35,961 nt of DNA from Gammaproteobacteria bacterium (GTDB lineage: Bacteria; Pseudomonadota; Gammaproteobacteria; Pseudomonadales; Azotimanducaceae), in NCBI GenBank assembly GCA_026705345.1, contig JAPPAV010000104.1:1-35961 (forward strand). Direction: 5' to 3'. Below, one piece after another: positions 12,806 to 35,925 of the stretch. The position numbers were made by a program, and so were the translations under genes. Position 1 is the stretch's first letter. Each line of letters opens with the position of its first letter. A model generated the notes under the pieces. It did no database searches. It was not told the DNA's origin and saw nothing but the letters and a program-made list of their open reading frames with translations.

Positions 12806-12899
12806 GTAGGGGCGACCCCAACGCGCCCGAAGGGCGCGCGGACGCCCGTGCCGGACGTACTGCTTCCTGGCAACGGGACGGGACAAGCCCGTCCCCTAC
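12806..12899. repeat. GTAG...CTAC hairpin element, tandem unit 1
   Basis: This unit begins GTAGGGGCGACC and ends CCCGTCCCCTAC. Inside are a central hairpin with CGCGCCC and GGGCGCG arms around GAA (near 12822-12838) and a right hairpin with arms GGGACGGG and CCCGTCCC at 12875-12882 and 12888-12895, loop ACAAG. The left hairpin that is perfect in other copies is degenerate here. It lies between the metR start and the hydrolase gene. GTAG followed by a palindrome is the defining layout of REP sequences; two in opposite orientation form a BIME. Confidence 0.75.
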
Positions 12900-12903
12900 G
12901 GTC

Positions 12904-12978
12904 GTAGGGGCGACGCTTGTCGTCACCCGCGGCGATGACGGGCGCCTGGGCACGGGACGGGACAAGCCCGTCCCCTAC
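12904..12978. repeat. GTAG...CTAC hairpin element, tandem unit 2
   Basis: A second unit starts four bases after the first. GTAG at 12904 is followed by a left arm GGGCGACG, loop CTTGT-like, and CGTCACCC. The right hairpin GGGACGGG / ACAAG / CCCGTCCC is perfect at 12954-12974, and CTAC closes the unit at 12975-12978. The 25-base right half is identical to that of unit 1, while the interiors differ, which points to copying of modular ends. Confidence 0.75.
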
Positions 12979-23748: not shown

Positions 23749-23810
23749 GTAGGGGCGACCCTTGTGGTCGCCCGCTAGGGCGCGCCGGGACGGGACAAGC
23801 ACGTCCCTAC
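23749..23810. repeat. Compact GTAG...CTAC paired-hairpin element
   Basis: The shortest and clearest copy, 62 bp, between two convergent genes. GTAG (23749) leads a perfect hairpin with arms GGGCGACC (23753-23760) and GGTCGCCC (23766-23773), loop CTTGT. A GCTA-centred short dyad follows. The right hairpin has arms GGGACGGG (23787-23794) and CACGTCCC, loop ACAAG, one mismatch, and CTAC closes at 23810. The two loops are reverse complements, so the element is two REP-like units facing each other. Confidence 0.8.
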
Positions 23811-28238: not shown

Positions 28239-28507
28239 CGTAGCGCCCCATAGCCGGGTCGGCCGCATCCGAAGGACGCGCCTTCGCCCTTCGCTGTGCG
28301 CCGACTCCGCCTCCGGCCCAGCCACGCCGACCTCCCATGGAACCAACGCCACGGTCGCAAGCTCCCTTTGGCGTTTGTTCCATGCAAGCGGCGAGGCTAT
28401 CGCGCCCGCTAGGGCGCGCCCTCGCCCGTTGTTCCACGGTGCCGTACGAACGGCGCGGGACGGGACAAGCCCGTCCCCTACGGCTCGTGGCTTGCCGCGA
28501 TAGCTAC
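28239..28507. repeat. Composite repeat copy A: 150-bp module plus hairpin element
   Basis: This fills the 315-nt gap between two convergent sulfatase genes. The 150-bp module (28239-28388) begins CGTAGCGCCCC and ends CCATGCAAG. It includes a long hairpin whose 16-bp arms (28336-28351 and 28369-28384) pair with one mismatch. Then come a nested hairpin with outer arms GGCGAGG/CCTCGCC (28390-28396, 28420-28426) and inner arms CGCGCCC/GGGCGCG, a perfect GGGACGGG/ACAAG/CCCGTCCC hairpin (28457-28477) and CTAC. The right edge reaches a further CTAC at 28504-28507, which overlaps the stop codon of the reverse-strand sulfatase. The 50 bases before 28239 show nothing recognisable. Confidence 0.8.
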
Positions 28508-31007: not shown

Positions 31008-32636
31008 ATGGAACGAACGGCTGCCCATGCGTTGGTGGAGACGCTTGAGAACCAGGGCGTCGACCGGGTCTTCTGCGTTCCCGGCGAGAGCTATCTCGAT
31101 GTGCTCGACGCGCTGCGGGACTCGTCCATTCAGACCGTCGTTGCCCGCCAGGAAGGCGGGGCCGCCATGATGGCGGAGGCCGATGCCAAGCTGACGGGCC
31201 GCCCCGGCGTGGTCTTCGTCACCCGGGGCCCGGGTGCCGCGAACGCCAGCTCGGGGGTTCACGTGGCCCAGCAGGACTCCACGCCGCTGGTGCTCTTCGC
31301 CGGCCAGGTGGCGCGTGTCGCGCGGGGCCGCGACGCCTTCCAGGAGATCGACTTCGCGGCGTTCTACGGCGGGATGGCCAAGTCCGTGGAGGAGGTCGCG
31401 GACCCCGCCCGGGTTCCGTGTGCGGTTGCGGACGCTTTCCGCGCGGCGCTGTCGGACCGGCCCGGGCCTGCGATTGTGTCGCTGCCGGAGGACATGTTGG
31501 GAGAGCCGTGCGCGGCACCGCCCGTCGGGCGCGCCGCGGTGGGCGACGAACCCTTGGACGAGGCTCTGGTTCGCGAGTTCGACGCTCACCTCGAAAACGC
31601 CAAGCAACCCCTTGTCGTCGTCGGCGGTTCGCTTTGGCGTGCGCCGGACACGGCGAGACTCGCGAACTACGCCGAGGTCGCAGGCGTTCCCGTCGCCTGC
31701 GTGTTCCGGCGCCAGCAACTCTTCGACCACGAACATCCCCACTACGCGGGCGACATCGGCATCGGTCTCAACCCGGCCCTGCGCCGGGCGGTCGAGGAAA
31801 CCGATCTGCTCGTGCTGCTCGGCACGAGGTTCTCGGAGATCCCGAGCCAGGCCTACGCGCTGCCGCTGGCGCGTACGCCGGTGGTTCACGTGCATCCCGA
31901 TTCATCGGAGCTGCAGCGGGTGCATCGGGCGGAACTGGCGATCCAGGCCCGTCCCGGCGCTTTCCTGGCGGCATCGGCGGCACGGGGTAGGCGAAACGTG
32001 TACGTGGATGCCCTGCATGCGAGCTATCTGGACTGGTCGCGTCTACCGCATCCGTCGCTCGGCGGAATGACCATGGGCAAGGTGATGGCCACGCTCCGCG
32101 ACCTCGGCGAGCCCGATATGATCGTCACGAACGGGGCGGGGAACTACTCAGGCTGGGTGCACCGCTTTCACCGTTTCCGCCGGTTCGGAACACAGGTGGC
32201 GCCCACGTCGGGGTCCATGGGCTACGGGCTGCCGGCGGCGATCGCTGCCAAGCTTCGCCATCCGGAACGCACCGTGGTCTGTTTTGCCGGGGACGGCTGT
32301 TTCCAGATGACGGGCCAGGAACTCGCCACCGCCGTGCAATACGACGTCCGGGTGATCGTGCTGGTGGCCGACAACGGCATGTACGGCACCATCCGCATGC
32401 ACCAGGAGCGCGCCTTCCCGGGCCGGGTCCACGCCACGTCGCTGACGAATCCCGACTTCGCGGCGCTGGCGAGGGCCTACGGCGCGTACGGCGAACGCCT
32501 GGAACGCGATGCGGACTTTCCGGCCGCGTTTACGCGGGCGCGGGAAGCTCGCGCGCCGGCGGTATTGCACCTTCTGGTCGACCCCGAGGCGATAACACCC
32601 GCCGAGACGCTGTCGTCGTTGCGGAACACCCCGTAG
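31008..32636 (+). CDS. Thiamine diphosphate-dependent enzyme, acetolactate-synthase-like
   Basis: A 542-residue ThDP enzyme with the three usual domains. The N-terminal pyrimidine domain contains the activating Glu49 (ARQEGGAAMM). The central domain runs from about 195 to 340, and the C-terminal pyrophosphate domain has GDG (428-430) and Asn456 for Mg2+ and ThDP. The second residue of the metal motif is changed from NN to DN (VADNGMYG). No small regulatory subunit follows, so it is probably not the biosynthetic IlvB; the family also holds sulfoacetaldehyde acetyltransferase, oxalyl-CoA decarboxylase and other decarboxylases. Its TAG stop lies in the first bases of the composite repeat. Confidence 0.88.
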   Translation: MERTAAHALVETLENQGVDRVFCVPGESYLDVLDALRDSSIQTVVARQEGGAAMMAEADAKLTGRPGVVFVTRGPGAANASSGVHVAQQDSTPLVLFAGQVARVARGRDAFQEIDFAAFYGGMAKSVEEVADPARVPCAVADAFRAALSDRPGPAIVSLPEDMLGEPCAAPPVGRAAVGDEPLDEALVREFDAHLENAKQPLVVVGGSLWRAPDTARLANYAEVAGVPVACVFRRQQLFDHEHPHYAGDIGIGLNPALRRAVEETDLLVLLGTRFSEIPSQAYALPLARTPVVHVHPDSSELQRVHRAELAIQARPGAFLAASAARGRRNVYVDALHASYLDWSRLPHPSLGGMTMGKVMATLRDLGEPDMIVTNGAGNYSGWVHRFHRFRRFGTQVAPTSGSMGYGLPAAIAAKLRHPERTVVCFAGDGCFQMTGQELATAVQYDVRVIVLVADNGMYGTIRMHQERAFPGRVHATSLTNPDFAALARAYGAYGERLERDADFPAAFTRAREARAPAVLHLLVDPEAITPAETLSSLRNTP

Positions 32637-32753
32637 CGCCCCATAGCCGGGTCGGCCGCGTCCGAGCCACGCCGACCTCCCATGAAACCAACGCCACGGT
32701 CGCAAGCTCCCTTTGGCGTTTGTTCCATGCAAGCGGAGGGGCTTGTCCCCTCC
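32632..32753. repeat. Composite repeat copy B, with 48-nt internal deletion
   Basis: The module at 32632-32733 begins CGTAGCGCCCC and ends CCATGCAAG like copies A and C, but is about 102 bp long because a 48-nt internal segment is missing after TCCGA. The long hairpin is retained (arms 32681-32696 and 32714-32729). A separate hairpin follows, with arms GGAGGGG (32735-32741) and CCCCTCC (32747-32753) and loop CTTGT, so the loop sequence of the REP-like hairpins is kept although the arms differ. Bases 32634-32636 are the stop codon of the upstream gene. The remaining 41 nt to 32794 show nothing else. Confidence 0.8.
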
Positions 32754-32794
32754 CGTGCCAAGCCGCGGATTTGTTCGAAAGACCCCCGTCCGGG

Positions 32795-35652: not shown

Positions 35653-35925
35653 CGTAGCGCCCCATAGCCGGGTCGGCCGCGTCGGAAGGACGCGCCTTCG
35701 CCATTCGCTGTGCGCCGACTCCGCCTCCGGCCCAGCCACGCCGACCTCCCATGAAACCAACGCCACGGTCGCAAGCTCCCTTTGGCGTTTGTTCCATGCA
35801 AGGGGCGACCCTTGCGGTCTGTCGAGTAATGCAGCGTCGGTTCAACGGTACGAGAATGCGGCAGCATTCTGGATCGCGCCCGCAGGGCGCGCCGGGACGG
35901 GACCCAGGGACAAGCCCGTCCCCTT
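35653..35925. repeat. Composite repeat copy C: 150-bp module plus hairpin element
   Basis: This fills most of the 434-nt right-end region without a gene (35528-35961). The 150-bp module (35653-35802) is nearly identical to copy A and keeps the segment lost from copy B; its long hairpin has arms at 35750-35765 and 35783-35798. Then follow GGGGCGACCCTTG, a perfect 7-bp hairpin AGAATGC/GCATTCT at 35853-35870 with loop GGCA, CGCGCCC/GGGCGCG at 35875-35891, and a GGGACGGG...CCCGTCCC hairpin with an 8-nt insertion (35894-35922). The final CTAC is degenerate here. The last 36 bases show nothing. Confidence 0.78.

What the first reader, a model, noticed from the sequence alone, without database searches (positions are those of the whole stretch)
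28239..28388. A 150-bp conserved module found three times, only beside the hairpin elements
Seen: copies at 28239-28388, 32632-32733 and 35653-35802 in the same orientation, with few differences outside a 48-nt deletion in the middle copy. Each carries a 16-bp-arm hairpin and each is followed by REP-like hairpins. It encodes no plausible protein and no terminal target duplication is visible. It fits no standard REP or MITE that I recognise. It could be a non-autonomous mobile element, or a transcribed structured RNA whose hairpin is conserved.
Basis: partly seen in the sequence, partly recalled or inferred. Interest (0 to 1): 0.75.

Follow-up and report, generated by a model that had tools for sequence, protein, structure and literature searches.

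The report
Tiny mobile element nested in REPs
The repeated 150-bp module is a small, gene-less mobile element that has spread through a genus of uncultured bacteria, often by inserting at one exact spot inside another tiny repeat, the REP hairpin; the enzyme that moves it was not found.

Summary
Two full copies (150 nt, 97% identical) and one copy with a 48-nt deletion lie at the stated coordinates. It is not local: the window's genome shows 25 matches and 13 of 37 other genomes searched have matches.

Comparison with relatives shows a mobile element. At the second and third copies, relatives keep the uninterrupted site, a plain REP, CGTAG|GGG or CGTAG|GGC, where our genome has the module between. 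Five further sites, none at an intact GTAG REP, also gave exact empty sites; 8 of 15 sites examined did not. The rule is insertion at AG|G; the REP head GTAG is the favourite context (49 of 124 placed copies). At these copies the "REP-like hairpin after the module" is the severed half of the target REP.

The element has no terminal inverted repeats and at most a 2-bp AG repeat. Two hairpins on one strand covary (90 doubly changed cells; 36 in shuffles, 12 to 26 in slid controls).

Anatomy resembles IS200/IS605-type single-strand (HUH) miniature elements. No autonomous partner was identified, so the enzyme is inferred. IS110 is the main rival; IS110 genes were not found in five module-rich genomes, but three others hold one each.

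The parts
28240..28243 (+). GTAG directly left of copy 1 (w1), read as the head of the target REP
   Evidence: Sequence; GTAG precedes CGCCCC in 49 of 124 placed copies, w1-w3 not included. The orthologous gap in G004 carries REPs, but the alignment there is not clean.
28244..28388 (+). Copy 1, element proper, CGCCCC...TTCCATGCAAG, 145 nt, with the longer form of the left hairpin (about 19 nt more than L011)
28258..28305 (+). Left hairpin of copy 1 (GTCGGC ... GCGCCGAC)
   Evidence: fold; changes on both sides in helices 1-3
28306..28333 (+). Strongly conserved centre (TCCGCCTCCGGCCCAGCCACGCCGACCT)
   Evidence: 69 copies: most of its columns invariant or at least 90% identical
28336..28384 (+). 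Right hairpin of copy 1: arms 28336-28351 and 28369-28384
   Evidence: helix 5 has 10 of 16 pairs with a change on both sides
28385..28388 (+). Right terminus NNAG (here CAAG) of copy 1
28389..28428 (+). Hairpin after copy 1, read as a REP remainder that is itself interrupted by a second small hairpin
   Evidence: sequence; inference
32633..32636 (+). GTAG head of the target REP of copy 2; its TAG is also the stop codon of the upstream gene (31008-32636)
32637..32733 (+). Copy 2, 97 nt, lacking most of the left hairpin (48-nt deletion)
   Evidence: empty site in G004: CCGTAG|GGGAGGGGCTTGTCCCCTCCC
32734..32754 (+). Severed stem-loop of the target REP of copy 2
   Evidence: present uninterrupted in G004, one base different
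35654..35657 (+). GTAG head of the target REP of copy 3
   Evidence: G003 C169 and C131 have TTCGTAG|GGCGACC uninterrupted
35658..35802 (+). Copy 3, 145 nt, full length
35803..35823 (+). Severed part of the target REP of copy 3
   Evidence: right flank 91.8% identical over 122 nt in G003, without the module

Best explanation
The module is a non-autonomous transposable element (126-153 nt in the full-length copies aligned; 97 nt in the deleted copy 2). It inserts at AG|G, most often in the head of a GTAG REP (GTAG|GGG), splitting the REP into its GTAG and its stem-loop. Shown: the element boundaries, the AG|G target, insertion into pre-existing REPs at two window copies, spread within the genus, and conservation of two hairpins on one strand by compensatory changes. 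Inferred: it moves as a single strand through an HUH (Y1-type) nuclease that recognises the two subterminal hairpins. The bases 5' of the right hairpin (CCTNN) face the terminus and target base (NNAG|G) and may serve as a guide, as guide tetranucleotides do in IS200/IS605. The enzyme acts in trans and was not identified.
For: Empty sites: w2 in G004, w3 in G003 on two contigs, and L246, L259, L027, L023, L256. At these 7 sites the base after the junction is G in at least one relative at 7 of 7, and the two bases before it are AG in at least one relative at 6 of 7 (L246: TG). Over the placed copies: non-GTAG class left A .87 G .83 (n 75), right A .90 G .90 then G .85 (n 68); GTAG class GGG after the right NNAG in 30 of 39, two of the other nine being cut off by a contig end. 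Asymmetric ends without TIRs and two hairpins on one strand. Covariation: 90 doubly changed cells against a shuffle mean of 35.9 (0 of 500 reach it) and 12-26 in slid controls; 15 pairs changed on both sides against 10.3 (3 of 500); 87.2% of cells paired against 83.8% in shuffles and 33.8-44.1% slid. Recent mobility: 7 identical copies at different sites in G011. A RAYT (Y1 HUH) gene with GTAG REPs on both sides exists in this genome and in G004.
Against: No autonomous element with these ends was found: the fetched Y1 and IS110 loci hold only five left-end-like hits with two mismatches, which look like chance, and no right end (about 1.5 kb of flank each). G006 and G011 show 25 matches each but no Y1_Tnp match at E <= 0.001. 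No guide complementary to the left cleavage site was recognised. The two bases before the right AG vary among near-identical copies of this genome, which simple HUH transfer does not predict. CCT and AGG pair by conservation only: those three positions are no better than shuffles. 8 of 15 sites examined gave no clean empty site. At L027 one relative (G003) has C, not G, after the junction, and at L259 one relative (G000) lacks three bases there.
Confidence: 0.5

Rival explanations
1. A non-autonomous IS110/IS1111-type element: it has lost the recombinase gene, keeps a structured non-coding guide RNA (bridge RNA/seekRNA-like), and recombines at a 2-bp AG (CT on the other strand) core in REPs.
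For: IS110 is the family most represented among REP-associated ISs in one survey, and ISPpu9/ISPpu10 make 2-bp direct repeats there (PMC1525189, passages). The module has no TIRs, AG at both junctions, covarying stems and a strongly conserved centre.
Against: PF01548: one gene in the own genome, by eye not between REP halves (L172) and without module ends; none in the module-rich G003, G004, G006, G009, G011. Most in G015 (19) and G013 (11), which have no module match, though these are also more distant genomes. Against this: G002, G007 and G008, also module-rich, have one each (G002's with a stop). Non-REP copies share only AG|G plus a weak upstream CATG, shorter than I would expect of a guide-specified target (recalled). 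Transposon genes are easily lost from MAG bins, so absence is weak evidence.
Confidence: 0.2
2. A REP/REPIN-like substrate of the resident RAYT: the module is an enlarged GTAG-headed hairpin dispersed by the RAYT together with its downstream REP.
For: GTAG at the head of 49 of 124 copies; the RAYT has REPs with the same GTAG head on both sides; left-end fragments are fused to inverted REPs in some loci, for example L081.
Against: The empty sites at w2 and w3 show that GTAG and REP stem were there without the module, so GTAG is target. 75 of 124 copies lack GTAG. No module end near the RAYT within the fetched flanks. G006 and G011 have the module without a Y1 match. The E. coli enzyme cleaves at CT and needs GTAG (PMC8266576, passages).
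Confidence: 0.15
3. A transcribed structured RNA or 3'-UTR element (terminator, stabiliser) kept for function at gene ends.
For: Covarying stems; w1 and w2 lie between convergent genes.
Against: Sites vary between species and relatives carry empty sites, at w2 and w3 beside the same genes. No expression data here.
Confidence: 0.08

Closest known systems
PATEs (palindrome-associated transposable elements), miniature IS200/IS605 derivatives
   Same: Small, gene-less, no TIRs, hairpins near the ends, inserted at a short fixed target (the name was seen only in a search listing, there in a paper on IS200/IS605; the details are recalled).
   Different: No parent IS200/IS605 was found with these ends; the target is AG|G and often the head of a REP.
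REP-targeting insertion sequences (IS621, ISPpu9, ISPpu10, ISPa11 of the IS110 family; IS1397 of the IS3 family)
   Same: Insertion at one fixed position inside REPs; for ISPpu9 and ISPpu10 a 2-bp direct repeat (PMC1525189, passages).
   Different: Those encode their transposase and are longer (recalled), and in the survey's type-1 cases every copy is in a REP; this is under 160 nt, carries no gene, and uses non-REP AG|G sites in many copies.
REP/REPIN/BIME with RAYT (TnpA-REP)
   Same: Shares the GTAG tetranucleotide and occurs in REP clusters.
   Different: GTAG belongs to the target; two unequal hairpins with a conserved centre; precise insertion after GTAG.
Bacterial MITEs (RUP, NEMIS, ERIC; named in PMC3733652, passages)
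   Same: Short, non-coding, dispersed.
   Different: No terminal inverted repeats and no target duplication beyond a possible AG.

Membership tests
IS200/IS605-derived miniature element (PATE) | No TIRs; hairpins near both ends on the same strand | tested here: met
IS200/IS605-derived miniature element (PATE) | Insertion directly 3' of a short fixed target without duplication | tested here: met
   Exact empty sites at 7 of 15 sites examined; target AG|G. A 2-bp AG duplication cannot be told from an intrinsic AG terminus.
IS200/IS605-derived miniature element (PATE) | Guide tetranucleotide 5' of each hairpin complementary to the cleavage site | tested here: inconclusive
   CCTNN 5' of the right hairpin faces NNAGG; the two NN positions pair more than shuffles (0 and 3 of 1000 reach the count) but the CCT/AGG positions do not; no left guide seen.
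IS200/IS605-derived miniature element (PATE) | Ends shared with an autonomous Y1-encoding element | tested here: not met
   No convincing module end in the fetched Y1 loci (limited flanks); no Y1 match at E <= 0.001 in G006 and G011. MAG bins may lack such genes.
REP/REPIN | GTAG head belongs to the mobile unit | tested here: not met
   GTAG remains in the empty sites; 75 of 124 copies lack it.
REP/REPIN | Flanks the RAYT gene | tested here: not met
   The RAYTs of G000 and G004 have simple REPs at both sides, no module end.
IS110/IS1111 derivative | 2-bp core at both junctions | tested here: inconclusive
   AG at both ends; by eye on that list the right AG usually stays where the left is not AG, which fits an intrinsic end better.
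IS110/IS1111 derivative | DEDD recombinase with the same ends or target in the genome | tested here: not met
   One PF01548 gene in G000, by eye not in a REP; none in G003, G004, G006, G009, G011; one each in G002, G007, G008; no convincing module end in 30 IS110 loci.
IS110/IS1111 derivative | Guide RNA expressed from the element | not testable with these tools
   No RNA data.
Classical MITE | Terminal inverted repeats and target-site duplication | tested here: not met
   Ends CGCCCCAWAGCC and GTTCCATGNNAG are unrelated; at most AG is duplicated.

The most novel reading that the evidence does not exclude
A self-guiding miniature element: its own hairpins (as single-stranded DNA or RNA) choose the target by pairing with AG|G and the adjoining bases, an enzyme shared with other resident hairpin families acts in trans, and REPs, themselves non-autonomous, serve as docking sites, so that one non-coding element parasitises another. 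The four interchangeable terminal dinucleotides would then be a specificity code.
Probability: 0.2. Interest if true: 0.8.

Novelty: new variant of a known kind. Interest (0 to 1): 0.55.

Why it matters
It shows one gene-less element nested with base precision in another gene-less element, across a genus, with exact empty sites. REPs are usually discussed as hairpins moved by RAYTs; here the GTAG head acts as a landing site for something else. Finding the enzyme would either extend HUH single-strand transposition to REP-dependent miniature elements or reveal a recombinase-less relative of guide-RNA elements, with a compact natural substrate to test.

Tried and rejected
Rfam: no match at gathering scores. 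Plasmid and phage collections: no match. Viral contigs: two patterns gave nothing; four hits to a left-end pattern share one sequence that does not continue as the module. IS110 as partner: examined, not supported. Y1/RAYT as partner: present, without module ends. A longer element in G011: four contigs start with the same 54 nt (ending TTTGTTCCATGGAAGGGG) and then differ; the last 33 nt before GAAG occur, with up to 3 mismatches, in 16 genomes only at those four contig starts, so the interior is not in the bin. The automatic consensus fold of A1 gave only 10 pairs, 1 with changes on both sides, probably because the length variants misalign the left stem; I therefore named the structure by hand from one copy and counted it, which favours that structure to some degree. 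Literature: five searches were answered; I saw no report of this element in their listings or in the passages read, which is not proof of absence. Papers: PMC8266576, PMC1525189, PMC3733652, PMC11187229 passages only; all others search listings only.

Rows dropped: 128 loci from nine genomes made the copy set; 124 gave a left end with at most 3 mismatches (w1-w3 not counted; a few of these placements are poor, e.g. L276, L277, L251). From 99 full-length copies (w1 and w3 included), 73 remained after removing near-duplicates; I left out L024, L079 and L276 by hand as poor fits, and L286 because it runs off its contig, leaving 69 in A1. Loci came from ranked, capped hit lists, so strong matches are over-represented. 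Of 12 copies whose flanks were joined, 8 were aligned with relatives.

Full report
What is there. The three copies are real. A genome search found 25 matches in the window's genome (G000, 5.07 Mb) and matches in 13 of 37 other genomes: 12 of 15 of the same genus and one of another genus of the family (only part of the first-look candidates was scored, so counts are lower bounds). One exact-pattern scan of named genomes hit MAGs titled Gammaproteobacteria bacterium (isolates RHO3_bin_63, RHO1_bin_53, COS4_bin_45, SB0670_bin_10); that these are sponge symbionts is my guess from the isolate codes. No plasmid or phage record matched.

Boundaries and target. I oriented 128 loci from nine genomes and could place the left end in 124. 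The sequence starts sharply at CGCCCCAWAGCC and ends at GTTCCATGNNAG. 49 copies have GTAG directly before the start; of the 39 of these with a placed right end, 30 continue with GGG after the right NNAG and two are cut off by a contig end. The other 75 have mostly AG before the start and AG|G at the right. Some of these follow a GTTCCATGNNAG that seems to belong to another copy or to another hairpin family, i.e. tandem or nested insertions (L012, L278, L294, L256).

Empty sites. For w2, G004 has CCGTAG|GGGAGGGGCTTGTCCCCTCCC, an intact REP, where our genome has CGTAG-[97 nt]-CGGAGGGGCTTGTCCCCTCCC; G003, G002 and G006 lack even the REP. For w3, G003 has TTCGTAG|GGCGACCCTTGCGG on two contigs. For w1 the relatives differ too much to decide. 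I then joined the flanks of 12 further copies and searched the genus. Alignment with relatives gave exact empty sites for 5 of the 12 (L246, L259, L027, L023, L256) and near or too diverged results for 3 (L236, L298, L284). For L253 the listed relatives lack the stretch that holds the REP too, and for L228, L011 and L016 I saw no hit spanning the join in the cut list. So 7 of 15 sites are clean. At those 7 the base after the junction is G in at least one relative (at L027 G000 and G002 have G, G003 has C), and AG precedes it in at least one relative at 6 (L246 has TG; at L259 G000 lacks three bases there while G003 and G004 match exactly).

Structure. A 69-copy alignment shows a strongly conserved centre and two stems whose sequences vary. 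With a structure named from one copy, 87.2% of cells pair (83.8% in shuffles, 33.8-44.1% in slid controls), 15 pairs have changes on both sides (10.3 in shuffles, reached by 3 of 500) and 90 cells are doubly changed, against 35.9 in shuffles (0 of 500) and 12-26 in slid controls. The automatic fold of the same alignment found only 10 pairs. Single-strand DNA folds of four copies are more stable than shuffles (z -2.3 to -4.4). The w2 copy has lost most of the left stem.

The terminal NN. The two bases before the right AG are mostly C or G, then A or G. In G000, L011 and L013 are identical over 122 nt but end CAAG and GGAG; L014 ends CGAG, L016 GAAG; among five such copies NN differs at 12 of 20 pairwise positions while the body differs at 20 of 1,220. 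Over all 54 close pairs the rates are 0.148 and 0.012; in G011 seven identical copies all end CAAG. NN pairs with the two bases 5' of the right hairpin in 34 of 61 non-GTAG copies but in 9 of 39 GTAG copies. I cannot explain this; a coupling sequence carried from the donor site, or conversion between hairpin arms, are guesses.

Which enzyme. The genome holds a RAYT-like gene with a PNHLHG motif at C29, with GTAGGGGACGGGCTTGTCCCGTCCC-type REPs on both sides; NCBIfam's best model is REP-associated tyrosine transposase, below its cut-off (72.5 of 80 bits). G004 has the same arrangement. A second, multi-copy Y1 gene lies in a different repeat family. Neither has convincing module ends within the flanks fetched, and G006 and G011 have no Y1 match. 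IS110 genes: one in G000; none in G003, G004, G006, G009, G011; one each in G002 (with a stop), G007 and G008; 19 and 11 in G015 and G013, which have no module match but are also more distant. Because multi-copy transposon genes often fall out of MAG bins, these absences are weak. Four G011 contigs start inside the same longer repeat that ends in TTTGTTCCATGGAAG and then go on, after GGG, into different sequences, which is what an unassembled autonomous relative would look like, but its interior was not found.

Mechanism. Shown: precise insertion at AG|G, use of the REP head, spread, structural conservation; for this core I would put the odds above 0.9. Inferred: transfer of one strand by an HUH nuclease recognising the hairpins, as in IS200/IS605, where guides 5' of the palindromes select cleavage sites (PMC8266576, passages); about 0.5. 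The IS110 alternative explains the 2-bp AG and the REP target well (PMC1525189, passages) and remains open.

Verdict. A new family of non-autonomous mobile elements with the unusual habit of landing exactly in the head of REPs. The kind (miniature non-autonomous element) is known; the combination of asymmetric hairpin ends, AG|G target and REP nesting is a variant for which I found no description in the listings.

Noticed in passing
L031/L085 (G000:C29), gene near 82860-83183 minus: A RAYT-like gene with GTAGGGGACGGGCTTGTCCCGTCCC and GTAGGGGCGACCCTTGTGGTCGCCC REPs on both sides; five REPs spaced 95-96 bp form an array on one side.
   Followed up: partly
L086, L087, L088, L089 (G000 C132, C121, C10, C123): A second, multi-copy Y1-like gene (motif HAH, N-terminal GGARPGAGRP) beside its own repeats of about 89 bp, with relatives in several genomes of the genus.
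   Followed up: partly
G011 contigs C8, C14, C47, C116, first 54 nt (L312-L315): Four contigs begin with the same 54 nt ending TTTGTTCCATGGAAGGGG and then differ: the right end of a longer multi-copy element whose interior is not in the bin.
   Followed up: yes
L082, L241, L310, L331: Other hairpin families share the foot GTTCCATGNNAGG with different stems (for example ...GGGTTGCGGATTTGTTCCATGGAAGG), as if one end type served several elements.
   Followed up: no
L021, L024, L215, L235, L263; L228, L268: Two recurrent non-REP right contexts after the module: CGAG followed by TTTCCACCCC-like sequence, and ACGCGACCGCTTCGCGGTCGCCCCGAGAATTCGC-like sequence.
   Followed up: no
L011, L013, L014, L015, L016, last four bases of the element: Near-identical copies differ at the two bases before the right AG (12 of 20 pairwise positions, against 20 of 1,220 in the body); seven identical copies in G011 do not.
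   Followed up: partly
window 12899-12978, 23749-23810, 28481: Further plain GTAG REPs, some in opposite orientations close together.
   Followed up: no
window 32633-32636: The REP's GTAG supplies the TAG stop codon of the TPP-enzyme gene (31008-32636), so the insertion right after it leaves the protein intact.
   Followed up: no
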